64,000 nucleotides of DNA from Gulosibacter sp. 10 (GTDB lineage: Bacteria; Actinomycetota; Actinomycetes; Actinomycetales; Microbacteriaceae): NCBI RefSeq assembly GCF_900163695.1, contig NZ_FUIC01000012.1:1-64000 (forward strand). The letters run 5' to 3'. Made by a program: the position numbers and the translations under genes. The notes beneath the pieces were generated by a model that had not been told where the DNA came from, searched no databases, and saw only the letters and a program-made list of their open reading frames with translations. Of this stretch, positions 1-11,310 are shown piece by piece. The number at the start of each line of letters is the position of its first letter. The stretch's first letter is position 1.

Positions 1-3
1 CTC

Positions 4-585
4 CTACACGGACAGCGACGCGCTCAACGGACTACACCCTCGTTCGAGAAGAGCCCGATAACCGGGGTCCGCGACGGCCAGGACGCCGGGCGCACCGGCA
101 CAGGAGATGCCGTGCAGCTCCGCGAATCCCGTGGGGATGATCCGGCTCCCGACGACCGCCTCGATCGCGATGAGCGCACCGCCATCGGGGTGGGCGCAGA
201 AGATCGTCCCGGCCTCGTCCACGGCGATGCCGGAATGCATCCACCCGTCGCTATCGGGCAGGTGATCGCTGAGGTCCTCCCACTCGACGATACCCGTCGG
301 CGACGGCGTCGGAGAGGGCGACATCTGGGCCTGCCACTGCAGCGTCTGCAGGTGCTCGCGGATGTCCTGGCGCCGGGTCAGCGGCTCCGGCCACGCGAAA
401 CCGCGGACGGAAGTCCCATCGGGAAGCTCCAGCTCGAGCAGGAACTCGGCGCCCGTGAAATCCACGAGCCTGGCCGAGGCCGCCTCGGGAAAGGTCATGC
501 GCGCGATATCGAGGAGTGCTTCGGGCTGGCTCTCGTTCATGTAGTCGGCGATGAACGTCTTCGCCTCGGCGTCGGGGGTATACAT
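4..585 (-). CDS. NHL/SMP-30-like beta-propeller fragment, probably truncated
   Basis: This is a 193-residue open frame. The ATG at 585 is chosen because GAGAGGAAG lies just upstream of it on the coding strand. Residues 1-100 match nothing I recognise. From about residue 119 the protein reads like the first blades of an NHL/SMP-30 propeller: GIAVDEAG at 119-126, LHGI at 157-160 and VADPG ending at 175. It then stops within 18 residues. Such propellers normally need about six blades (roughly 250-300 residues), so this looks like a truncated or frameshifted copy. The rest, if any, lies beyond the left edge of the window. It follows the sugar porter gene on the same strand after 76 bp and is probably co-transcribed with it. 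A lactonase-like role is possible for the family but is not shown here. Confidence 0.5.
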   Translation of the reverse strand: MYTPDAEAKTFIADYMNESQPEALLDIARMTFPEAASARLVDFTGAEFLLELELPDGTSVRGFAWPEPLTRRQDIREHLQTLQWQAQMSPSPTPSPTGIVEWEDLSDHLPDSDGWMHSGIAVDEAGTIFCAHPDGGALIAIEAVVGSRIIPTGFAELHGISCAGAPGVLAVADPGYRALLERGCSPLSASLSV

Positions 586-661
586 GCTTCCTCTCCAGTG
601 GTCGGTTGAGGTTCGGCCCCGGGACCGCATCGCGCAGTCCCGGGGTGTGGAGCGTCGACTC

Positions 662-2104
662 TCAGCGGGTGTGGATCGCCCCGGTGGAGACGTCCTCCTC
701 GATCTTCTCGAGGGTGCGGCCCCGGGTCTCGGGAATGAACTTGAGCGCGAACGCGAGCGCGATGAGGTTGAGCACGCCGAAGCCGAAGAAGGAGCCGACC
801 ATGCCGATTCCCTCGACGACGGAGGGGAATACGAGCCCTACCGTCGCATTGGCGATCCAGTGGCAGAACACCGCGACGCCGATTCCGAACCCGCGCATGT
901 GCAGGGGGAAGATCTCCGAGAGGATGACCCAGGTGGAGATGCTGAGGAACGTCTGCATCGACCCGACGAATAGGACGATGAGGAGGAGGATCACGTACGG
1001 GCGAACGGCGGTTCCCTGCTCGAGGAGCATCGTCGAGAGGGCGATGAGGACGTGGCAGAGCGTGACCATTCCGTAGCCGATGATGAACATCTTCCGGCGA
1101 TCCATGCGCTCCATCAGCGACAGCGCGATGAACCCGCCGATGACGCCGATCAGCCCCGGCGCGACGTTGGCGATGAGCGCCGCGTTCCGGTCGAAGCCGG
1201 CCTCGATGAGCACGGTCTGCCCGTAGTACACGATCGTGTTGATGCCGGTGAGCTGCTGGAAGACGCCGATGCCGATGCCGATGAGCAGGATGCGGCGCAG
1301 CCACTTGTTCGCGAGGATGTCGCGCCAGCCGCTGGTCTTCTCGGCATTCGCCTTCGCCTGAGCCGTGGTGTACATGATCTCGGCGAGTTCGGCTTCGGCT
1401 CGGTCCTCGGAGCGCATCCGCTTGAGGATCTCGAGAGCCTCATCGTTGCGGCCGCGCTCGACGAGCCATCGAGGCGACTCCGGGACCCGCAGCATGCCGA
1501 TGAACAGCGCTGCGGCGGGAATGAGGCAGACGGCGAGCATGACGCGCCAGACGCCGTCGATGTGACCCCAGACGTTGCCGATGATCGCGTTGACGACGAA
1601 GGCGAGGAACGCGCCGATGATGACCATCATCTCGTTGCGCCCGGAAAGCGAACCGCGCACCTCGAACGGCGCGATCTCGGCGAGGAACACCGGCACGACC
1701 CCGGACGCACCGCCGACCGCGAGACCGAGCAGCACTCGGCCGACCACCATGACGCCGAAGCTCGGTGCGAATACGCAGATCAACGAGCCGAAGAAGAACG
1801 CCAGGGCGAGCAGGAGGATCGTCTTGCGCCTGCCCAGGACATCGGCGAGGCGGCCGAAGACGAACGCGCCTACCGCGGCCCCGAACAGGAGCGAGCTCGT
1901 GACGATGCCGACGGTAAGCGGGGTCAGGCCGAGCTCCTCGGTCATCGGCAGCAGCGCGCCGTTGATGACCCCGGTGTCATAGCCGAAGAGCAGACCGCCG
2001 ATGGTGGCGATCATGGTCACGCGGACCAGGTATTTGCGATGCGGACCCGGGCGGAGGGCTGGCAGCGCGGGCCTCGCCTCGGGGATTTCTGAGTGTTGCG
2101 TCAT
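662..2104 (-). CDS. MFS sugar porter (inositol/hexose proton symporter type)
   Basis: This 480-residue, 12-helix carrier of the sugar porter family imports a sugar or polyol with protons across the inner membrane. Family signatures are clear: GYDTG at 41-45 in helix 1, GRLADVLGRR at about 84-93, PESPR at 208-212 before the central loop, the GINTIVYYG stretch in helix 7, and PETRG near residue 460 close to the C terminus. Start ATG 2104 has AAAGGAG seven bases upstream. The gene is divergent from the P450 fusion, and its promoter overlaps a LacI-type operator. The regulator lies beyond the P450 gene. The substrate cannot be read from sequence. The context suggests a sugar that the P450 then oxidises. 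Confidence 0.85.
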   Translation of the reverse strand: MTQHSEIPEARPALPALRPGPHRKYLVRVTMIATIGGLLFGYDTGVINGALLPMTEELGLTPLTVGIVTSSLLFGAAVGAFVFGRLADVLGRRKTILLLALAFFFGSLICVFAPSFGVMVVGRVLLGLAVGGASGVVPVFLAEIAPFEVRGSLSGRNEMMVIIGAFLAFVVNAIIGNVWGHIDGVWRVMLAVCLIPAAALFIGMLRVPESPRWLVERGRNDEALEILKRMRSEDRAEAELAEIMYTTAQAKANAEKTSGWRDILANKWLRRILLIGIGIGVFQQLTGINTIVYYGQTVLIEAGFDRNAALIANVAPGLIGVIGGFIALSLMERMDRRKMFIIGYGMVTLCHVLIALSTMLLEQGTAVRPYVILLLIVLFVGSMQTFLSISTWVILSEIFPLHMRGFGIGVAVFCHWIANATVGLVFPSVVEGIGMVGSFFGFGVLNLIALAFALKFIPETRGRTLEKIEEDVSTGAIHTR

Positions 2105-2152
2105 TGCGACTCCTTTGTCATCTCGCGCCGGAGGCACTGCCCCGGCGCCCCA

Positions 2153-2175
2153 ATCATGGCGCGCGCTAATACTAT
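2153..2175. promoter_or_regulatory. Operator O2, imperfect copy of the LacI-type palindrome
   Basis: The segment shares the GGCGCGCGC core and the AATACT right arm with the perfect palindrome at 2250-2277, but its left arm is degenerate. Its centre (2162/2163) lies 101 bp from the centre of the main operator. It sits inside the sugar porter promoter. Confidence 0.55.
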
Positions 2176-2181
2176 TGTCAA
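2153..2181 (-). promoter_or_regulatory. Promoter of the sugar porter gene
   Basis: On the minus strand a perfect -35 box TTGACA (2176-2181) is followed by a 17-bp spacer and the -10-like box CATGAT (2153-2158). Start codon 2104 lies about 40 bases further on. The spacer is almost filled by the second LacI-type operator, so repressor binding would occlude RNA polymerase. Confidence 0.55.
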
Positions 2182-2218
2182 GACAAGAGATTCCCGGCTT
2201 GAAGCTGCCGAAATCGGC

Positions 2219-2247
2219 TTGACCTCGCAAGACGTGCTGGCTAGCAT
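2219..2247 (+). promoter_or_regulatory. Promoter of the P450 fusion gene
   Basis: TTGACC (2219-2224) and TAGCAT (2242-2247) are separated by exactly 17 bp, giving a plausible sigma-70-type promoter. Its start point would fall near 2254, inside the perfect palindrome that begins three bases after the -10 box. Confidence 0.55.
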
Positions 2248-2249
2248 TC

Positions 2250-2277
2250 CGCAGTATTGGCGCGCGCCAATACTGCG
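2250..2277. promoter_or_regulatory. Operator O1, perfect 28-bp palindrome of LacI type
   Basis: Half-site CGCAGTATTGGCGC is followed directly by its exact reverse complement. The inner 14 bp (2257-2270) have the form TTGG-N6-CCAA with a central CG step, as in many LacI-family operators. The site overlaps the predicted start point of the P450 gene. The LacI-family gene at 4602-5624 is the obvious candidate to bind it. Confidence 0.75.
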
Positions 2278-2302
2278 CACACCGTAGAGAGACGAGTAAT
2301 CA

Positions 2303-4567
2303 ATGGCGATCAACATCGAAAAGCCCTACGTGGAGTCGGAGTACGACCCCATCTACGACCCCTTCACCGATGAGTTCCAGCGCGATCCGTTCACGGCGTA
2401 CCGGCGGCTTCGCAACGAAGCTCCCGTGTACTACAACGAGAAGTGGGACTTCTACGCCTTGAGCCGGTTCGACGATGTCCGAGCGGCGCTCAAGGACCAC
2501 GAATCGCTGCTGAACTTCCAGGGTGTCGACATCGACGACTTCGAGCAGGAGCAGAGCGGCTATCCCGGGATGATCCCGAACATCGACAACCCCCGGCACG
2601 ACCAGTTGCGCTCCGTAGTGCAGCGCTCGTTCATGCCGCGGACGATCAAGGGGCTGACCGAGGAGGTCAGGAAAGTCTGCGACGGGCTCATCGACGGATT
2701 CGCCGGTCGTCGCGAAGTGGATCTCTCGGACGAGTTCGCGTGGCCGATCCCCTTCGAGGTCTTCTACAACTTCTTCGGCATGCCTCACGGGAAGATCCGC
2801 GAGCAGTTCGTGGAATGGACCCACGGCATCAAGCACAGGGAGCCCGGCACGCCGGAGCTGACCGACTTCGCGAGGGAGTCGTCGCGAGAGCTCCGCGAGT
2901 ACCTGGCCGAACTGCTGCGCGAGCGCCGGCGCAACCCGCAGGACGATGTCCTCACACGGATCGTGCAGGCGGAGATCGACGGCGAGCCGCTCGCCCCCGA
3001 GGAGTTCGACTACGCCGCCGAGGCGGTCGGCGTGGCCTTCGCCCTCTATCTGGGCGGGGTCGAGACCACCGCGGGTCAGATCTCCACGCTCTTCGAACAG
3101 CTCGCACGGCATCCGGAGCAGCAGCGCGCCCTGCACGAGGATCCGACGCTGATCCCCCGGGCCGTCGAGGAGTCGCTCCGGTATCGGACCATCTTCCAGG
3201 TGACGGCTCGGACCACGAGCCGCGAGATCGAGGTGGACGGCGTCTCGATCCCGAAAGGCAAGCGCGTGTTCCTCATCCTCGGTTCGGCGAACCGTGATGA
3301 GTCGAAGTTCGAGAACCCGGACGAGTTCGACATCCACCGTCCGCCCGCGCCGCACCTGGGGTTCGGCGAAGGGCTGCACGGGTGCCTGGGCAATCCGCTC
3401 GCACGTCTCGAAGCCACCGTGGCGCTCGAGCAGATGGTCGCTCGAGGCGGGATGTTCGAACTCGCCGGCGACCCGGAGCGATACGTCACGACCCCGAACG
3501 CCTACGTCTTCGACCGGGTGCCGGTCCGCTTCCTCGATGCCCCCGTGGCAACCGAGCCGCGGAACGAGGAAGCGCCGTCCGCGGCGGCGGCCTCGCCCTC
3601 CGCCCCGATGGCGGCTCCCGCCCGGGCGAACGAGATCGCCGTGCGCGTCGCGAAGCGCATAGACGCCGCTGAAGGCGTCGCGCTCCTCACGCTCACGCCC
3701 GTCGACGGACAGCCGCTGCCCGACTGGTCCCCGGGCGCGCATATCGACGTGGTCATGAACGACATCCTCGAGCGGCAGTACTCGCTCTGCGGCGACCCGC
3801 GCGATCGCAGCTCCTACACGATCGGAGTGCTGAAAGAAGAACGAGGGCGGGGCGGCTCCCGGCACATGCACGAGGAGGTGTCCGAGGGGAGCATCGTGAA
3901 GATCCGCGGCCCGAGGAACCATTTCGAACTCGTCGACTCGGAGCGGTACCTCTTCATCGCGGGCGGTATCGGCATCACCCCGATCGCGGCGATGGCCCGC
4001 GAGGTCCATCGTCGGGGCAAGCCCTGGCGGATGATCTACTGCGGGCGCAGGCTCGAGACCATGGCGCTTCGCGAAGAGTTCGGGCAGTACGGCGACCGGG
4101 TCACGTTCTGGCCCCGGGACACGCACGGGAGGATATCGCTCCCCGACGTGCTGCAGAGCCCCCGGGAGGGGACAGCCGTCTACACGTGCGGTCCCGCGCC
4201 GTTCACCGAGGCGATCGAGGAGATCTGCGAGGCCTCGTGGCCGAGGGGATCCCTGCACGTCGAGCGGTTCACGCCGAAGCAGTTCGACGATTCGGAGAAC
4301 ACCGAGTTCGAGGTCGAGCTGGCCCAGCGGGGATATCGGCTCACCGTGCCGAAGGATCGATCAGTGCTGGACACGCTGGAGGCGGCCGGCGTGCACGTCC
4401 TGTCGTCCTGCGGAGAGGGAACCTGCGGAACCTGCGACACGGCGGTCCTCGCCGGGGAGGTGGACCACCGCGATTCGGTCCTCACCAAGGAGGAGCAGGA
4501 CCGGAACGACTGCATGATGGTGTGCGTCTCCCGCGCGAAGTGTCCGAAGCTGGTGCTGAACCTTTGA
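2303..4567 (+). CDS. Self-sufficient cytochrome P450 fused to an FMN/2Fe-2S reductase
   Basis: This 754-residue cytosolic monooxygenase carries its own electron chain. Residues 1-410 are a bacterial P450: I-helix GGVETT at 251-256, ExxR at 290-293, and the haem loop FGEGLHGCLG with thiolate Cys361. An Ala/Pro-rich linker spans about 413-443. Residues 445-750 form a phthalate-dioxygenase-reductase-type module. It has flavin motif RQYS at 491-494, nucleotide-binding GGIGITP at 554-560 and CGP at 629-631. A C-terminal plant-type ferredoxin has Cys703, Cys708, Cys711 and Cys741 (CX4CX2CX29C). NAD(P)H electrons would pass FMN, 2Fe-2S, haem. The arrangement matches class VII (CYP116B-like) fusions, but the CYP family cannot be assigned here. 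LacI control and the divergent sugar porter suggest a sugar-derived substrate, for example oxidative O-demethylation. An aromatic ether is the main alternative. Confidence 0.9.
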   Translation: MAINIEKPYVESEYDPIYDPFTDEFQRDPFTAYRRLRNEAPVYYNEKWDFYALSRFDDVRAALKDHESLLNFQGVDIDDFEQEQSGYPGMIPNIDNPRHDQLRSVVQRSFMPRTIKGLTEEVRKVCDGLIDGFAGRREVDLSDEFAWPIPFEVFYNFFGMPHGKIREQFVEWTHGIKHREPGTPELTDFARESSRELREYLAELLRERRRNPQDDVLTRIVQAEIDGEPLAPEEFDYAAEAVGVAFALYLGGVETTAGQISTLFEQLARHPEQQRALHEDPTLIPRAVEESLRYRTIFQVTARTTSREIEVDGVSIPKGKRVFLILGSANRDESKFENPDEFDIHRPPAPHLGFGEGLHGCLGNPLARLEATVALEQMVARGGMFELAGDPERYVTTPNAYVFDRVPVRFLDAPVATEPRNEEAPSAAAASPSAPMAAPARANEIAVRVAKRIDAAEGVALLTLTPVDGQPLPDWSPGAHIDVVMNDILERQYSLCGDPRDRSSYTIGVLKEERGRGGSRHMHEEVSEGSIVKIRGPRNHFELVDSERYLFIAGGIGITPIAAMAREVHRRGKPWRMIYCGRRLETMALREEFGQYGDRVTFWPRDTHGRISLPDVLQSPREGTAVYTCGPAPFTEAIEEICEASWPRGSLHVERFTPKQFDDSENTEFEVELAQRGYRLTVPKDRSVLDTLEAAGVHVLSSCGEGTCGTCDTAVLAGEVDHRDSVLTKEEQDRNDCMMVCVSRAKCPKLVLNL

Positions 4568-4601
4568 GCACGCGCCGCCCCGGTCGCGGCCCGATAGCGC
4601 G

Positions 4602-5624
4602 TCAGGTCGCCGGGCGGAGGGAGGAACGCCGGACGACCAACTCGGGCTCGAGCACCACCGTCCGGCCCTGCTTGTCGGGTTGCGCGATACGCTCGAGCAG
4701 CAGCGCCGCGGCTTCGGCGCCGATCCGTTTCGAGCGCTGGTCGACAGAGGTCAGCTCCACTCCGGGGTATCCCGCACCGCGGGTGTTGTCGTATCCGGTC
4801 ACCGCCAGATCCTCGGGAACTCGCAGGCCGAGCTCCTGCGCCCGCGCGAGGACGCCGATGGCCGTCGAGTCGTTGTAGCTGACGACGGCGGTCGGCAGCG
4901 TACCCGTCTCCGACATGTGCGTCAGCGCAGCCGCCCCGGCGGCCTCCGACGCGTCCCCGTCCAGCTCGAACGGGGCGAGCGAGGCCGAGAACATCGCATG
5001 CCTGTATCCTCCGCGCCGGGCGCTGTTCTGCTGCGTCACGGGGCCCGCGATATACGCGATCCGTCGGTGTCCCTGATCGATGAGGTGCTCGGTCGCGAGC
5101 CGTGCGCCGAGACGGTCATCGCCTGCAACGGAGTCCACCCGCTCGGATGAGGACACCTCGCCCAGCGACACGCACGGCGTGCTCGTGAGGAGCTCCTGAA
5201 TCTCGAGCCCTGCCGAACTGTGATCGGCGACCAGCAGGCCGTCGACCCGCAGCCCCACGAGCGAATCGATGTTCTTCCTCCGGCTCTCCTCATCCGGTCC
5301 GCCGACTGCCAGGAGCAGCTGGTACCCGGCAGGGGCGGTGACCCGGGCGATACCCTCGGCGAAGTCCGCGTAGACCTGGTTGTGGATGTCCAGAGTCACC
5401 ATGCCGAGCGCGAAGGTCCGCTGCCCCGCGAGGCCTGCGGCGAGGTGGTTCCGCCGGTACCCCAGGCGCTCGGCGGTCTCGAGCACGAGCGCGCGCTTGC
5501 CGGGCGCCACGTACCCCTGATTGCGGATGACGAGCGATACCAGCTGTCGCGAGACCCCGGCCGCCTTGGCCACATCCGCCATCGTGACGGTCCGGCGCGA
5601 CTGGGGAGTGTCATCGGACGGCAT
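4602..5624 (-). CDS. LacI-family transcriptional regulator
   Basis: This is a 340-residue repressor of standard length. The N-terminal helix-turn-helix covers residues 15-34 (MADVAKAAGVSRQLVS), followed by the hinge helix near 50-65. The periplasmic-binding-protein-like ligand domain runs from about 68 to the end. It ends with the usual ELVVRRS segment. ATG 5624 is favoured because TAGGAT (5632-5637) lies seven bases upstream, which predicts a leaderless mRNA. The gene is convergent with the P450 fusion, with 34 bp between the stops. By position it should control the P450/sugar porter pair through the two palindromic operators at 2153-2277, with a sugar or its oxidation product as inducer. 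That link is inferred. Confidence 0.88.
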   Translation of the reverse strand: MPSDDTPQSRRTVTMADVAKAAGVSRQLVSLVIRNQGYVAPGKRALVLETAERLGYRRNHLAAGLAGQRTFALGMVTLDIHNQVYADFAEGIARVTAPAGYQLLLAVGGPDEESRRKNIDSLVGLRVDGLLVADHSSAGLEIQELLTSTPCVSLGEVSSSERVDSVAGDDRLGARLATEHLIDQGHRRIAYIAGPVTQQNSARRGGYRHAMFSASLAPFELDGDASEAAGAAALTHMSETGTLPTAVVSYNDSTAIGVLARAQELGLRVPEDLAVTGYDNTRGAGYPGVELTSVDQRSKRIGAEAAALLLERIAQPDKQGRTVVLEPELVVRRSSLRPAT

Positions 5625-5689: not shown

Positions 5690-6442
5690 CTAGAGGATGA
5701 GGTAGACCGCGCCGAGCACCGTGAGCACGAGCACGATGCCGTCGAAGAGCTCCTGCTTGATGCGGTTCGCGATCCAGCGGCCGACGAAGGCGCCGACGAT
5801 GAGGCCCGGGATGAGCACGAGGTCCACGAGCAGACCGCCGGGCGTGATGAGCCCGAGGCCGATCGAGAAGGGCAGCTTGGCGAGGTTCACGATCGCGAAG
5901 AACCAGGCGGCGGTGCCGAGGAACGCCTTGACGGGGAAGCGCGCCGCGACGAAGTACATCGACATGACGGGGCCGCCGGCGTTGGCGACCATGGTCGTGA
6001 AGCCGCCGAGCGCGCCGTAGCCGATGCGCGAGGCGAGGGCCGCACGGTCGCTCGGCTCCTTGGGGGAGCGGTAGCGCTGCCACAGGGTGACGGCGACCAC
6101 GAGCAGCAGCACGACGCCGATGACGCGCTGCACGCCCGAGTCGTCGGCGAGCCAGAGGAACAGCACCCCCAGCAGCAGCCCCGCGGCGACGGCGGGGATC
6201 AGCCGGATCAGGGCTTTGCGGTCGGCGTGCCGCCGATACGCGAGTAGCGCGAAGACGTCCCCGACGATGAGCAGGACCAGCAGCGCCCCGGTCGACTCCT
6301 TCGCGGGCATGAGCGCCGCGAAGATGGCGATCGAGATCGTGGAGATGCCCGGCAGCGCCGTCTTGGAGATGCCGACGAAGAAGCCGGCGCAGACGAGCAG
6401 CGCCCAGGCGTAGGCGGGGAGTTCGGGGAGCAAGGTCAGCAC
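5690..6442 (-). CDS. TauE/SafE family membrane exporter
   Basis: This 250-residue membrane protein has about eight hydrophobic helices and the duplicated TauE/SafE architecture. A GISKTALPG motif sits near residue 24, and a second similar region (GGFTTMVANAGGP) lies near 150. Family members move sulfite, sulfoacetate or other organosulfur anions, but substrate calls within the family are unreliable. The GTG at 6442 is the start. TAGACT (6449-6454) lies six bases before it, consistent with a leaderless transcript. The gene is 85 bp downstream of the PfkB-like kinase on the same strand and 65 bp upstream of lacI. No sulfur gene is nearby to fix its role. Confidence 0.8.
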   Translation of the reverse strand: MLTLLPELPAYAWALLVCAGFFVGISKTALPGISTISIAIFAALMPAKESTGALLVLLIVGDVFALLAYRRHADRKALIRLIPAVAAGLLLGVLFLWLADDSGVQRVIGVVLLLVVAVTLWQRYRSPKEPSDRAALASRIGYGALGGFTTMVANAGGPVMSMYFVAARFPVKAFLGTAAWFFAIVNLAKLPFSIGLGLITPGGLLVDLVLIPGLIVGAFVGRWIANRIKQELFDGIVLVLTVLGAVYLIL

Positions 6443-6527: not shown

Positions 6528-7529
6528 TCAGTCCAGCCGCGCCGTGGGGACCGGCTCGCCGATCTCGACCGGGACGGAGGGGATGACCTCGGGGTTGATC
6601 GTCGGGCTCGCCGTGAGCACGGCGGCGCGGCCGAAGCGCACGGCCGTCGCGAGCGCCGCGCGCACCGCATCCGGGTCCCCATCGCCGCGCCAGCCGTGCA
6701 GGAGGCCGGCCAGCGTCGCGTCGCCCGCGCCGGTGGTGTTCACCGGGCGCACCGGCGCCGTGCGGGCCCAGTGCTGCGCGGTGCGGGAGACGAGCAGCAC
6801 GCCCCGATGGCCGAGCGTTGCGAAGACGTGCTCGACGCCCGAGCGCAGGAGCGCGAAGGCCGCGTCCACCGCGGCGCCGATCGTGGGGATGCGCCGGCCG
6901 GTGAGCTCCCGGAGCTCCTCGATGTTCGGCGCGATGAGGTGCGGTCGCACGCCCTGCGCGAGCCAGTCGCCCAGCGTCGCCGCGGGCAGGTCGAGCGCGA
7001 GCCGCGCGCCCGTTCGCTCCGCCAGCTCCGCGAAGGGGCGGACCTCGGCGGGCGCGGCGTCCGTGCCGTGGGCCGCGGGCATGGCCCCGCCCACGACGAG
7101 CCAGTCCGCGTCGATGTCCCGGACGGCGGAGTCGAGTTCGCGGTGCAGCGCCGCCCATTCCCCGGCGGAGAGCCGCGCGGCGGGCTCGTTGACGTTCGTC
7201 GTGGTGCCGTCGCGCTCGATGATCACCGAGTTCACGCGGGTGCGCTCGCGGATCGGGATCGGCCGCAGGTGCGCGCCGGGAGGCTGTGCGGCGAACTCCG
7301 GGGCGATGTTCAGCGGCGCCACCGCCGCGGTGGGGTTACCGGCGGCGGCGAGCGCCCTGGCGAGGTTGAGGCCGTTGCCGCCGAGGAAGTGCTCGGCCGG
7401 GGCCGACCGGTTGACGAGCCCGCGGGTCAGCGCGTCGAGGCGGATGACGCGGTCGATCGCGGGGGCGGGCGTGACCGTGACGACGCGGCTGAGCGCCGTC
7501 GTGCTGCGGACCTCGGGTGAGCTGGCCAT
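6528..7529 (-). CDS. 1-phosphofructokinase-type PfkB-family sugar kinase
   Basis: This 333-residue kinase has the ribokinase/PfkB fold and is closest in form to the 1-phosphofructokinase/tagatose-6-phosphate kinase branch (FruK/LacC). Seen in the sequence: an N-terminal TPAPAIDRV strand near 20-28, the PfkB signature GGNGLNLA at 50-57, APNIEEL at 200-206, and the catalytic GAGD at 267-270 with Asp270 as base. Start ATG 7529 has AAGAAGGAAG just upstream. It is divergent from the two iclR genes, so it may be part of the same regulon. No PTS fructose genes are adjacent, so the substrate (fructose-1-P, tagatose-6-P or an inositol-pathway intermediate) is open. Confidence 0.78.
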   Translation of the reverse strand: MASSPEVRSTTALSRVVTVTPAPAIDRVIRLDALTRGLVNRSAPAEHFLGGNGLNLARALAAAGNPTAAVAPLNIAPEFAAQPPGAHLRPIPIRERTRVNSVIIERDGTTTNVNEPAARLSAGEWAALHRELDSAVRDIDADWLVVGGAMPAAHGTDAAPAEVRPFAELAERTGARLALDLPAATLGDWLAQGVRPHLIAPNIEELRELTGRRIPTIGAAVDAAFALLRSGVEHVFATLGHRGVLLVSRTAQHWARTAPVRPVNTTGAGDATLAGLLHGWRGDGDPDAVRAALATAVRFGRAAVLTASPTINPEVIPSVPVEIGEPVPTARLD

Positions 7530-7675: not shown

Positions 7676-8461
7676 ATGGCTGGTGACACCGACGCGGGCG
7701 GGATGGCGATCCTCGAGAAGGCGGGGGCGATCATCTCGGCCCTCGAGAGCGAGGGCGAGTGGACGGCGGCGCAGATCTCGAAGGAGGTCGACGAGCCGGT
7801 GAGCTCGACCTACCGCCTGCTCTCCACGCTCATGTCGCTCGGCTGGGTAGACGCCGGGTCCAAGCGCGGCCGCTACCGGCTCGGCGTGGACGTCGTCCGC
7901 ATCGGCGGGCTGCTCGAGGACCAGCTCGACGTGCGCGCCACCGCGGCGCCGGTGCTCCAGCAGCTCCGCGACGAGACCCGCGGCACCGCGTTCCTCTGCG
8001 TGCTGCGCCGGGACAGCGCGGTGTGCGTCGAGCGCATCGGCGGGCGGGACGTGCAGTCGCTCGAGATGCGGCTCGGCGACAGCCTGCCGCTCTACAGCGG
8101 CGCGGCGCCCCGGGCGCTGCTCGCCTTCATGCCCGAGAAGGAGCGCGGCGCGGTGCTCGCGCGGCTCGCGGATCGTCGCGCCAGGGGCGAGGCGATCCCC
8201 TCGGAGCGGGAGATCCTCCGCGATGTGGAGGCGGCCCGGGCGTGCGGCTACACGATCTCCGATCAGGATGTGACGTTCGGGATCGGCGGCATCGGCGCGC
8301 CGATCTACAACCACCGGGGCGAGATCGAGGGCGCGATCTCGGTGAGCGGGCTGCGGGAGCGCGTGCTCGGCGTCGAGGCGGCCGCCGCGGAGCGCGTCGT
8401 GGTCGCGGCGCGCGAGATCAGCCGCGCCCTCGGCTACCTGGAAGCGGAGGAGGCGGCATGA
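7676..8461 (+). CDS. IclR-family regulator, first of an overlapping pair
   Basis: This 261-residue protein has an N-terminal winged helix-turn-helix (about residues 12-75). Recognition region AAQISKEVDEPVSSTYRLL is followed by a GRYRLG wing. The IclR effector-binding domain extends to the end, with the family motif GYTISDQDVTFGIGGIGAPI near 195-214. Start ATG 7676 follows GAAAG at a distance of nine bases. Its last four bases ATGA are shared with the next gene, which is also an IclR protein, so the two are translationally coupled. It is divergent from the pfkB-like gene and upstream of iolD, the likely targets. The effector is unknown. Confidence 0.85.
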   Translation: MAGDTDAGGMAILEKAGAIISALESEGEWTAAQISKEVDEPVSSTYRLLSTLMSLGWVDAGSKRGRYRLGVDVVRIGGLLEDQLDVRATAAPVLQQLRDETRGTAFLCVLRRDSAVCVERIGGRDVQSLEMRLGDSLPLYSGAAPRALLAFMPEKERGAVLARLADRRARGEAIPSEREILRDVEAARACGYTISDQDVTFGIGGIGAPIYNHRGEIEGAISVSGLRERVLGVEAAAAERVVVAAREISRALGYLEAEEAA

Positions 8462-9429: not shown

Positions 9430-11310
9430 ATGACGTCGAAGTCCTATCCAACTGTTCGGCTGACCGTCAGCCAGGCAATTATTCGTTTTCTGCAGGCACA
9501 GTACGTCGAGCGCGATGGTGAAACCCAGCGCTTCTTCGGCGGCGGCTTCGGCATCTTCGGCCACGGCAACGTCGGCGGCATGGGTCAGGCCATGCTCGAG
9601 TACGAGAAGGACTTCCCGTACTACCAGGGCCGCAACGAGCAGGGCATGGTGCACATCGGCATCGGCTACGCGAAGATGCGCAACCGCCTCGGCGCGCTCG
9701 CGGTGAGCACCTCCATCGGCCCCGGCGCGACCAACATGGTCACCGGCGCCGGCACCGCCTCGGTGAACCACCTCCCCGTCCTGCTGCTCCCCTCGGACGT
9801 GTTCGCCACCCGCGCCACGGGCGCGGTCCTGCAGCAGCAGGAGATGCCCTACGCGATGGACGTCACCGCCAACGACGCGTTCCGCGCCGTCTCGCGCTAC
9901 TTCGACCGCATCTGGCGTCCCGAGCAGCTCGCCCCGGCGCTGCTCGAGGCCATGCGCGTCCTCACCAGCCCGGCCGACACCGGCGCCGTGACCCTGGCCC
10001 TCCCGCAGGACGTCCAGGCCGAGGCCTACGATTTCCCCGAGGACCTCTTCCGCGACCGCGTGTGGCACGTGCCCCGCAACCGCGCCGACCGCGCGTCGAT
10101 CAAGCGCGCCGCCGAGATCATCCGCTCGGCGAAGAAGGCCGTCATCATCGCCGGCGGCGGCGTCATCTACTCCGAGGCCACCGAGCAGCTCGTCCGCCTC
10201 GCGGAGTCCACCGGCATCGGCGTCGGCGTCACGCAGGCCGGCAAGGCCTCGTTCCCGCACGAGCACGAGCTCGCCCTGGGCGGCCTCGGCTCGAGCGGCA
10301 CCAAGTACGCGAACATCCCCGCGGGGGAGGCCGACGTCGTCATCGGCATCGGCACGCGCTACACCGACTTCACCACCGCGTCGAACACGCTGTTCAAGAA
10401 CCCGGACGTCAAGTTCGTGAACATCAACGTCGCCGAGATCGACGCCTACAAGGAGTCGGCCACCGCTCTCATCGGCGACGCGCAGGTCACGATCGAGGAG
10501 CTGCTCGAGGAGCTCGGCGACTGGTCGCTGCCCGTCGAGTCGCGCGAGGCCAACGTCGAGTCGGCCTCGGAGTGGCGCACGGAGCTGGACCGCATCATCG
10601 AGCTCGACGGCTCGCCCACGCTCTCGCAGGGGCAGATGCTCGGCATCCTCAACGGCGCCGCCGGCGAGCGCGACGTGATCGTCAACGCCGCGGGCTCGAT
10701 GCCCGGCGACCTCCACCGCCTGTGGCGCCCCGGCAGCACCAAGGGCTACGACATCGAATACGGCAACTCGTGCATGGGCTACGAGGTCCCCGGCGCGATC
10801 GGCAACGCGCTCGCCGACCGCAGCCGCCACGTGTTCGGCCTCATCGGCGACGGCACGTACCTCATGCTCTCGAGCGAGATCCTCACCGCCGTGCAGGAGC
10901 AGCTGAAGATCACCTTCGTCGTCGTGAACAACTACGGCTACGGCTCGATCGCGGCGCTCTCGGAGACCGTCGGCTCGCAGGCCTTCGGCTGCCGCTTCAA
11001 CGAGCGCGGCGAGGACGGCTCCACCCACGACGGCGCCCGCCTCGAGGTCGACTTCGCGAAGAACGCCGAGAGCTACGGCGCCAAGGTCTGGACCGCCGAC
11101 ACGGCCGACGGCTTCCAGCAGGCCCTCGAGGAGGCCAAGGCCTTCGACGGCACGAGCGTCGTGTACGTCGAGGTCGACTCCCAGGCCCGCTTCGGCGGCT
11201 CGGGAGCCTGGTGGGACGTCGCCGTCGCCGAGGTCTCGGAGCTCGAGTCGAGCATCGGGGCCCGCGCCGAGTACGACGAGCACCGCAAGGAGCAGCGCCT
11301 CTACCTGTAG
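9430..11310 (+). CDS. iolD: 3D-(3,5/4)-trihydroxycyclohexane-1,2-dione hydrolase (IolD)
   Basis: This is a 626-residue thiamine-diphosphate enzyme. In myo-inositol catabolism IolD opens the ring of 3D-trihydroxycyclohexane-1,2-dione to 5-deoxy-glucuronate. Length and sequence fit IolD. The N-terminal Pyr domain has Glu70 in GRNEQG as the likely cofactor-activating glutamate. The central domain follows, then the C-terminal PP domain with the ThDP motif GDG at 473-475 and NN at 500-501. ATG 9430 is chosen because the GGAAGGGTGG purine stretch precedes it and the homologous region begins there. No iolB, iolC, iolE or iolG gene is adjacent, so it is an orphan in this window. A perfect palindromic operator overlaps its predicted promoter, and a 32-bp palindromic hairpin follows it. 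Confidence 0.85.
   Translation: MTSKSYPTVRLTVSQAIIRFLQAQYVERDGETQRFFGGGFGIFGHGNVGGMGQAMLEYEKDFPYYQGRNEQGMVHIGIGYAKMRNRLGALAVSTSIGPGATNMVTGAGTASVNHLPVLLLPSDVFATRATGAVLQQQEMPYAMDVTANDAFRAVSRYFDRIWRPEQLAPALLEAMRVLTSPADTGAVTLALPQDVQAEAYDFPEDLFRDRVWHVPRNRADRASIKRAAEIIRSAKKAVIIAGGGVIYSEATEQLVRLAESTGIGVGVTQAGKASFPHEHELALGGLGSSGTKYANIPAGEADVVIGIGTRYTDFTTASNTLFKNPDVKFVNINVAEIDAYKESATALIGDAQVTIEELLEELGDWSLPVESREANVESASEWRTELDRIIELDGSPTLSQGQMLGILNGAAGERDVIVNAAGSMPGDLHRLWRPGSTKGYDIEYGNSCMGYEVPGAIGNALADRSRHVFGLIGDGTYLMLSSEILTAVQEQLKITFVVVNNYGYGSIAALSETVGSQAFGCRFNERGEDGSTHDGARLEVDFAKNAESYGAKVWTADTADGFQQALEEAKAFDGTSVVYVEVDSQARFGGSGAWWDVAVAEVSELESSIGARAEYDEHRKEQRLYL

What the first reader, a model, noticed from the sequence alone, without database searches (positions are those of the whole stretch)
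4..5624. P450-reductase fusion wired to a sugar porter and a LacI repressor: possible modified-sugar demethylase module
Seen: a single-chain P450-FMN-2Fe-2S enzyme, a divergent MFS sugar porter with PETRG/PESPR signatures, a beta-propeller fragment, and a LacI regulator, with palindromic operators in between. Known: P450s of the CYP236A type from marine bacteria oxidatively demethylate 6-O-methyl-D-galactose, but they need separate ferredoxin and reductase partners. GcoA-type P450s demethylate aromatic ethers. Inference: this module could import an O-methylated or otherwise capped sugar and strip it with a self-sufficient P450. I am not aware of that combination being described.
Basis: partly seen in the sequence, partly recalled or inferred. 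Interest (0 to 1): 0.82.

Follow-up and report, generated by a model that had tools for sequence, protein, structure and literature searches.

The report
Self-sufficient P450 for methylated inositols
A bacterium carries a one-piece P450 enzyme beside a sugar-type repressor, a sugar-type transporter and an inositol-breakdown gene, and relatives keep similar company, so it probably strips a methyl cap from a plant inositol (or a similar polyol) so that it can be eaten; the enzyme has not been tested.

Summary
The window opens at a contig end with a cut NHL beta-propeller, an MFS sugar porter, a 754-aa P450/FMN-reductase/2Fe-2S fusion and a LacI repressor; a perfect 32-bp palindrome and a second site lie between porter and P450. 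Despite its layout the fusion is not CYP116B: heme domain 29% identical to a CYP116B relative, own clade (100/99), joint clade rejected (p-AU 0.019).

I found five relatives in three genera, the window's included. All six have LacI adjacent or heading the same run. In one genus (3 of 12 genomes) the fusion adjoins an inositol-catabolism cluster, fullest in G1071; G1418 has a LacI, binding-protein, fusion, propeller run; a congener carries the window's five functions unfused in one run. An iolD lies 5 kb from the window fusion. None of 49 control loci shows these neighbours at my thresholds.

Best reading (0.45): a LacI-controlled P450 that O-demethylates an inositol methyl ether, feeding inositol catabolism. 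Fusion, regulator and polyol-type context are shown; substrate and demethylation are inferred. The papers listed by my searches include no bacterial P450 for methylinositols. Rivals: another capped sugar, a rhizopine or deoxy-cyclitol, or an unrelated substrate.

The parts
4..585 (-). N-terminal part of an NHL-type beta-propeller protein with an N-terminal DUF2470 domain; cut by the contig end
   Evidence: DUF2470; blastp 52% over 85 aa to the intact 343-aa propeller of congener G1216; aligned with G1216, G1418 and own C2 propellers, homology ends about 50 bases from the contig end; window = C22:1-64000
662..2104 (-). MFS sugar porter (480 aa)
   Evidence: Sugar_tr and TIGR00879 above cut-off; five family members, 56-65% identical, lie within 13 kb of an iolD elsewhere in the genus
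2156..2169 (.). Putative LacI operator 1, ATGGCGCGCGCTAA
   Evidence: the same 14 letters occur upstream of the P450 gene of congener G1216
2248..2279 (.). Putative LacI operator 2, perfect 32-bp palindrome with core TTGGCGCGCGCCAA
2303..4567 (+). Self-sufficient P450: heme domain (about res. 1-412), linker, FMN/NAD reductase and C-terminal 2Fe-2S ferredoxin
4602..5624 (-). LacI-family repressor
   Evidence: 56% identical to the LacI that heads the G1216 P450 run, 35-36% to the three LacI divergent from the g165 fusions
5690..6442 (-). TauE/SafE transporter (context)
   Evidence: 75% identical copy in the G1216 C15 iolD locus
6528..7529 (-). PfkB-family hexose kinase (context)
7676..8461 (+). 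IclR-family regulator 1 (context)
   Evidence: 72% identical copy before iolD in G1216 C15
8458..9210 (+). IclR-family regulator 2 (context)
   Evidence: 61% identical copy before iolD in G1216 C15
9430..11310 (+). IolD, 3D-(3,5/4)-trihydroxycyclohexane-1,2-dione hydrolase of inositol catabolism
   Evidence: TIGR04377 834 bits, cut-off 715; 89% identical to G1216 C15 IolD

Best explanation
A LacI-repressed catabolic module for a capped cyclitol. The porter (in relatives an ABC binding protein or a whole ABC system) brings in an O-methylated inositol such as D-pinitol, ononitol or sequoyitol. The single-chain P450 passes electrons from NAD(P)H through FMN and 2Fe-2S to the heme and hydroxylates the methoxy carbon; the hemiacetal falls apart to formaldehyde and free inositol. 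The inositol enters the iol pathway (IolG, IolE, IolD, IolB, IolC). A chiro-inositol product would first need an inositol dehydrogenase and a TIM-barrel keto-inositol isomerase (recalled); genes of both kinds sit in a row behind LacI in one relative (G1065). The free cyclitol or its methyl ether would release LacI from the TTGGCGCGCGCCAA operators. SHOWN by sequence: the fusion and its catalytic residues, the LacI link, the palindromes, the iol and polyol-type neighbours in the window and relatives. INFERRED: substrate, demethylation, cofactor choice, operator use, inducer, and the propeller's role.
For: (1) Genus g165: in 3 of 12 genomes the fusion (47-48% identical by blastp; 49-50% by alignment) lies between a divergent LacI and an iol cluster: iolC, aldolase, ABC uptake and a Gfo/Idh gene in all three, iolB and iolD too in G1071 and G1065; in G1071 an iolE-like gene is directly downstream on the same strand. 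In G1071 IolC, IolB and IolD exceed their NCBIfam cut-offs; IolG (294 of 355) and IolE (153 of 290) do not. (2) G1418, another family: LacI, binding protein, fusion and propeller in one direction; the binding protein is 44-45% identical to those of the g165 iol clusters, and all four score best against the rhizopine (inositol-derivative) binding-protein model, 182-199 bits, below its cut-off of 420. (3) Congener G1216: one run lacI, propeller, porter, P450 (71%), reductase (59%), with sites like the window's. (4) Window: iolD at 9430-11310. (5) Porter family in genus g1 (E 1e-30 or better): found in all 4 genomes with an iolD over cut-off and in none of the 7 without (Fisher 0.003, shared ancestry ignored). 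(6) The five P450-positive genomes of g1 and g165 all have iolD over cut-off, against 13 of 23 overall (Fisher 0.046). (7) Controls: none of 13 other P450-PDR fusion loci, 32 loci and 4 plasmid loci has iolD, iolC, iolB, the aldolase, this binding protein, LacI, propeller or porter over the thresholds I set. (8) Polar residues invariant in the six members and rare in the 73 other heme domains compared (15% or less): D78, Q84 (B-C loop), H174, K177, R179 (F-G region) and N399; such regions line P450 pockets (recalled). (9) Precedent: in several rhizobia a LacI-family regulator is divergent from the mocD operon, needed to catabolise the O-methylated inositol amine 3-O-methyl-scyllo-inosamine, and in many cases precedes a TIM-barrel epimerase gene (PMC3538637, passages).
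Against: No substrate, product or growth evidence. The three g165 cases probably descend from one event, so the direct iol link rests on about two independent contexts (g165 and the window). In G1216 and G1418 no iolD, iolC, iolB, aldolase, Gfo/Idh or IolE-like TIM-barrel gene was found in the 16-19 kb read on either side, and the window's first 30 kb has iolD but none of the others. In G1216 the locus orthologous to the window's iolD block is on another contig than the P450 run, so the window's nearness may be young or chance. The porters of the window and of G1216 are not orthologues. The porter family and this propeller also occur in a LacI, Gfo/Idh, TIM-barrel operon without a P450 (own C2, L162), so a wider range of sugars is possible. 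Nothing in the sequence proves that the substrate is methylated: hydroxylation of a deoxy-cyclitol would fit the same neighbours. H/K/R in the pocket region could also bind an acid. The AlphaFold heme model is weak (mean pLDDT 68.5, residues 73-94 under 50), so I could not check that the polar residues face the heme.
Confidence: 0.45

Rival explanations
1. Same machine, different polyol: the P450 uncaps or oxidises a methylated or otherwise modified sugar or glycoside, and the products go through Gfo/Idh and TIM-barrel keto-sugar enzymes rather than the iol pathway.
Against: In g165, where the neighbourhood is richest, it is a myo-inositol pathway; iolD is the catabolic gene of assigned pathway nearest the window module.
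Confidence: 0.22
2. The substrate is a rhizopine-like amino-cyclitol (3-O-methyl-scyllo-inosamine) or the reaction is hydroxylation of a deoxy-inositol, not O-demethylation of a neutral inositol ether.
For: The four binding proteins score best against the rhizopine binding-protein model; the LacI plus oxygenase plus TIM-barrel layout of G1065 mirrors the mocD neighbourhood (PMC3538637).
Against: All four scores (182-199 bits) are far below the curated cut-off of 420, and that model may simply be the nearest named inositol binder. No aminotransferase or amino-cyclitol gene was recognised by eye in the clade loci.
Confidence: 0.13
3. An ordinary catabolic P450 for an aromatic or terpene-like compound whose sugar-type neighbours are incidental.
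For: The nearest two-gene P450/PDR relatives (sister at 93/89, not starred) sit in aromatic-type or unassigned catabolic loci on Rhodococcus and Pseudonocardia plasmids. Characterised relatives in mechanism act on aromatics: OhpA (PMC8449657), PbdA (PMC11530827).
Against: LacI adjacency in 6 of 6 members, against no LacI over 120 bits to my model in 49 control loci. Three CYP116B loci that I read (L075, L077, L081) show IclR-type regulators instead, and L081 has homogentisate-type genes (by eye). No aromatic-pathway gene was recognised by eye close to the fusion in the clade loci.
Confidence: 0.2

Closest known systems
CYP116B class VII self-sufficient P450s (P450 RhF, CYP116B46, OhpA)
   Same: One-chain heme, FMN reductase, 2Fe-2S order; full-length alignment to 6kbh and 6laa
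   Different: Heme domain 29% and reductase 41% identical to a CYP116B relative; separate heme clade, union rejected p-AU 0.0186; CYP116B-type reductases split off at 100/100. OhpA serves 2-hydroxyphenylacetate/homogentisate and lies near an IclR-type regulator gene (PMC8449657, passages)
6-O-methyl-D-galactose P450 demethylase of porphyran-degrading marine bacteria
   Same: Proposed job: oxidative removal of a methyl ether from a carbohydrate, with formaldehyde
   Different: Uses separate ferredoxin and ferredoxin reductase (PMC10033563, passages); no sequence comparison made here
PbdA/PbdB (CYP199A with its own reductase)
   Same: O-demethylating P450 with a dedicated NADH reductase carrying flavin and Fe-S; resembles the unfused G1216 pair in layout
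   Different: Substrate is p-methoxybenzoate, held by Arg84, Ser87 and Ser237 in a hydrophobic pocket (PMC11530827, passages); its regulator was not looked at
Rhizobial rhizopine catabolism (moc genes)
   Same: Inositol methyl-ether derivative; LacI-family regulator divergent from the mocD operon in several rhizobia; TIM-barrel epimerase (PMC3538637, passages)
   Different: No P450 named in the passages read; that mocDEF is the demethylating oxygenase system is recalled, not read
PHM/PAL peptide amidation
   Different: Thirty other entries rank above PAL, so the fold alone shows nothing about function

Membership tests
CYP116B self-sufficient P450 | Heme, FMN reductase, 2Fe-2S in one chain, in that order | tested here: met
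CYP116B self-sufficient P450 | Heme domain at least 40% identical to CYP116 (nomenclature rule, recalled) | tested here: not met
   29% to the heme domain of L077, itself 1056 bits to 6kbh and 555 bits to RhF; named CYP116B sequences were compared only by phmmer
CYP116B self-sufficient P450 | Heme domain in one clade with CYP116B | tested here: not met
   78-row tree and AU test p 0.0186; 79-row quick tree with G1418 agrees
CYP116B self-sufficient P450 | Reductase groups with CYP116B reductases | tested here: not met
   48-row tree, the CYP116B-type reductases (11 rows) split off at 100/100; no AU test of this union
Inositol catabolism (iol) locus | iolD equivalog next to the module in the window | tested here: met
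   TIGR04377 834 bits, cut-off 715; 4.9 kb from the P450
Inositol catabolism (iol) locus | P450 adjacent to an iol cluster in all members | tested here: not met
   3 of 6 (g165); window iolD only; G1216 and G1418 none within 16-19 kb
Carbohydrate O-demethylase P450 (CYP236A-like) | Releases formaldehyde from a methylated carbohydrate | not testable with these tools
   needs enzyme assay
Carbohydrate O-demethylase P450 (CYP236A-like) | Sequence clade with CYP236A | not tested
   I had no CYP236A sequence
Rhizopine uptake (MocB-type binding protein) | NF052284 over its cut-off of 420 bits | tested here: not met
   188, 199 and 197 bits for the three g165 binding proteins, 182 for G1418
PAL-type hemiaminal lyase (propeller) | NHL propeller fold | tested here: met
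PAL-type hemiaminal lyase (propeller) | Catalytic metal site of PAL | tested here: inconclusive
   histidines of W(M/L)HSG, LHGI/MHTI, CPHGI and (S/A)PHG are shared by the three full propellers; their place relative to PAL's metal was not measured

The most novel reading that the evidence does not exclude
A dedicated two-enzyme ether-cleaving pair for cyclitols: the fused P450 makes the hemiacetal of an inositol methyl ether and the co-encoded NHL propeller (its GTG start overlaps the P450 stop in G1418) acts like PAL in peptide amidation, breaking that intermediate or handing on formaldehyde. This would be a carbohydrate counterpart of PHM/PAL in a new P450 family.
Probability: 0.1. Interest if true: 0.85.

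Novelty: new variant of a known kind. Interest (0 to 1): 0.64.

Why it matters
Methylated cyclitols are a major share of the carbohydrates in many plants (PMC5889025, abstract start in the listing), and D-pinitol is among the plant osmolytes (PMC10145852, abstract start); yet the papers listed by my searches include no bacterial P450 that removes the methyl group. If the reading is right, it supplies a candidate enzyme with its own electron chain, a candidate cyclitol-responsive repressor with defined palindromes, and a route from plant osmolytes into bacterial central metabolism. It would also show that a P450-PDR fusion outside CYP116B was recruited for polyol rather than aromatic catabolism. 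The test is a one-enzyme assay with cyclitols.

Tried and rejected
CYP116B membership: rejected. A single origin of the fusion within the clade: not settled. The heme domains form one clade (100/99 with five members; SH-aLRT 99 with all six in a quick tree), but the reductases of window/G1216 and of g165 do not group together in the tree, and holding them together is not rejected (p-AU 0.084; G1418 not included). G1216 is unfused (P450 stop at 2053, next ATG at 2064 of L106), so gene split and separate fusions are both open.

AlphaFold of the heme domain was too weak for pocket analysis and was not searched. SMP-30/gluconolactonase membership of the propeller: no Pfam SMP-30 hit; Pfam gave only a marginal NHL match for the full G1216 copy.

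Discarded results: the reductase tree (G1216 row in the wrong frame; redone) and the porter tree (wrong frames; redone, 16 rows). In one search one divergent reductase of L071 was left out. In some searches duplicate loci of one place and short hits were dropped before the tree. thresholds were set by me after seeing the clade, and its models were built from clade proteins, so it favours the clade; it shows that the neighbours are not general, not an unbiased score. Genes in relatives were called with my own simple codon-usage script; names of genes not scanned against a library are by eye. Of the 16 porter places, I read the surroundings of nine (window, own C51, C12 and C2; G1216 C1 261k and 478k, C15 and C18; G255 C4 with two porters counted as one stretch); the other places were not read. 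One search has no positive control inside it; the same query rang.

The pinitol-type substrate was chosen over others from context, not from any residue-level test. Fisher values ignore shared ancestry.

Literature (listings only; papers listed of papers found): 20 of 4,472, 30 of 43, 1 of 1, 9 of 9, 12 of 1,070, 12 of 35. None of those listed is, by title and abstract start, about a bacterial P450 for methyl inositols. The library holds open-licence papers only.
Full report
What is there. The window is the first 64 kb of contig C22 of a 3.65 Mb genome. In order: a beta-propeller gene cut by the contig end (4-585, minus), an MFS sugar porter (662-2104, minus), a P450 fusion (2303-4567, plus) and a LacI repressor (4602-5624, minus). 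The fusion carries a heme domain, a flavin/NAD reductase and a C-terminal 2Fe-2S domain; the residues listed in the observation check are invariant among the five fused members apart from T/S255. Further right are TauE, a PfkB kinase, two IclR regulators and IolD (9430-11310; TIGR04377 834 bits, cut-off 715).

Regulation. The porter/P450 gap holds a perfect 32-bp palindrome (2248-2279) and a second, two-mismatch site (2156-2169). In congener G1216 sites of the same kind stand before the P450 gene and, in variant form, before the propeller gene of its run. In genus g165 the LacI/P450 gap has a different palindrome, TTAAAGCGCTTTAA, in all three loci; an exact search of the 159 loci then held found it in six, which are those three places fetched twice. 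In G1418 a TGGAGCGCTCCA palindrome stands before the binding-protein gene. Conserved association with changing palindromes is what local LacI regulators co-evolving with their sites would give.

Family. By layout it looks like CYP116B, and 6kbh and 6laa are its best full-length structure matches. By descent it is not: heme identity to a CYP116B relative is 29% and reductase identity 41%; the 78-row heme tree puts window, G1216 and the three g165 proteins in one clade (100/99) away from ten CYP116B rows, and the union is rejected (lnL 25.6 lower, p-AU 0.0186). Adding G1418 keeps the clade together (SH-aLRT 99, quick tree). CYP116B-type reductases split from the others at 100/100. The nearest group to the heme clade (93/89, 83, neither starred) is a pair of stand-alone plasmid P450s that have separate PDR/VanB reductase genes. 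In G1216 the two parts are adjacent separate genes, P450 71% and reductase 59% identical.

Distribution. Clade members were found in 1 of 299 genomes drawn from the window's family (the window's own; 95 of the 299 match at 1e-60, nearly all by a stand-alone reductase), 1 further in 396 drawn from the order (G521), 3 of 12 in the genus of G521, no others in its family (186 genomes), 2 of 11 in the window's genus including itself, none further in 396 drawn from the phylum, and 1 further in 394 drawn from the class (G1418, 1073 bits against 608 for the next). These draws overlap. A pattern scan of the 84,980-species collection returned 32 relatives, none over 36% identity. So the clade looks rare: six members in hand.

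Company it keeps. g165: LacI divergent from the fusion, next to an iol cluster with iolC, aldolase, ABC uptake and Gfo/Idh genes; iolB and iolD are beside it in G1071 and G1065, while G521 has an iolD some 16 kb further on; G1071 has an iolE-like gene directly after the fusion and is the fullest. In four P450-free g165 genomes that I read, an iol cluster is there without the module; in G1072 lysS lies beside iolE, so LacI, the P450 and a Gfo/Idh gene look like an insertion at that edge in G1071. G1065 has LacI, Gfo/Idh and a TIM-barrel gene in a row, divergent from the P450. G1216: one plus-strand run lacI, propeller, porter, P450, reductase. G1418: lacI, binding protein, fusion, propeller, the last with a GTG start on the fusion's stop codon (read by eye). 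LacI is thus adjacent, or at the head of the same run, in 6 of 6.

Controls and limits. Models of iolD, iolC, iolB, the aldolase, the binding protein, LacI, the propeller and the porter found nothing over my thresholds in 13 other fusion loci, 32 loci and 4 plasmid loci. The models came from the clade, so this shows that the neighbours are not a general feature, not an independent probability. The g165 cases probably share one origin. G1216 and G1418 have none of the iol, Gfo/Idh or TIM-barrel genes searched for in the 16-19 kb read on either side, and the window's first 30 kb has only iolD of these. In G1216 the locus that matches the window's TauE/IclR/IclR/IolD block (61-89% identical) is on another contig than its P450 run.

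Transport. The window porter belongs to a family found in 4 of the 11 genomes of this genus, exactly the four that have iolD over cut-off. Five members lie within 13 kb of an iolD (own C51, G1216 C15 and C18, two in G255 C4), three others beside Gfo/Idh and TIM-barrel genes without iolD (L160, L161, L162). The porters of the window and of the G1216 run are not orthologues. This supports polyol uptake without naming the polyol. IolF and IolT are known inositol transporters of Bacillus (PMC5504672, passages).

Mechanism. Most likely: repressor senses the imported cyclitol ether; the porter or ABC system imports it; the fusion oxidises the methyl carbon with electrons from NAD(P)H by way of FMN and 2Fe-2S; formaldehyde leaves; the bare inositol goes to IolG, IolE, IolD, IolB and IolC. 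The own genome has iolC (380 bits, cut-off 300) and iolB (225, cut-off 205) on contig C16, with an iolE-like gene (130, cut-off 290) and a dehydrogenase that scores best against the D-chiro/myo-inositol dehydrogenase model (282, cut-off 540), and two iolD over cut-off, one of them in the window. Demethylation is chosen because the neighbours already handle free inositol and what a P450 adds most simply is removal of a cap. Hydroxylation of a deoxy-cyclitol would fit nearly as well.

Comparison. The nearest known logic is rhizopine catabolism, where in several rhizobia a LacI-family regulator sits divergent from the mocD operon and in many cases before a TIM-barrel epimerase gene (PMC3538637, passages), and the porphyran 6-O-methyl-galactose P450 (PMC10033563, passages). 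The nearest known architecture is CYP116B. The combination of a self-sufficient P450 of a separate family with LacI and inositol genes is not among the papers listed by my searches. Verdict: a real and probably functional module; new variant of a known kind; substrate class likely polyol (sum of the first three readings 0.80), methyl inositol the most likely single answer (0.45).

Noticed in passing
window 1-60: The last 50 or so bases of contig C22 do not continue the propeller homology and give an early stop; the gene may well be whole in the organism, and what lies beyond is unknown.
   Followed up: partly
window 4-585: The window propeller has an N-terminal DUF2470 domain; the G1216, G1418 and own C2 propellers start without that stretch (alignment).
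   Followed up: no
L162 (own contig C2) 8616-16148: A P450-free operon of aldolase, porter, LacI, Gfo/Idh, two TIM barrels and the same propeller family: a likely sugar or cyclitol route of unknown substrate.
   Followed up: partly
L122 (own contig C51) 2048-14054: A second iolD (751 bits) in a run with a porter, VOC, Gfo/Idh, IclR-type, TIM barrel, 2-hydroxyacid-type dehydrogenase, SDR, aldolase and aldehyde dehydrogenase genes (mostly by eye): apparently another cyclitol pathway.
   Followed up: no
L040-L057, for example L043 17-3961: In many genomes of the window's family a stand-alone PDR/VanB-type reductase, 47-54% identical to the window reductase domain, is mostly flanked by two amidohydrolase-like genes and often an XRE or GntR regulator (by eye), with no oxygenase gene recognised in the 1.5 kb read on either side.
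   Followed up: no
L073, L076, L078, L079, L080, L093: P450-PDR fusions fall in several separate heme lineages besides CYP116B and the window clade, so such fusions seem to have arisen repeatedly.
   Followed up: partly
L081 4031-11346: A CYP116B relative next to an IclR-type gene and homogentisate-type genes (homogentisate dioxygenase and fumarylacetoacetase by eye), in line with the published OhpA function.
   Followed up: partly
L105 9963-11006: A zinc alcohol dehydrogenase gene (by eye) lies about 2 kb before the G1216 P450 run, on the other strand; zinc alcohol dehydrogenases are also found beside the 6-O-methyl-galactose P450 (PMC10033563).
   Followed up: no
L097 773-12651: Several sulfatase-like genes and an ABC system (by eye) lie on the far side of the G1065 P450/iol locus.
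   Followed up: no
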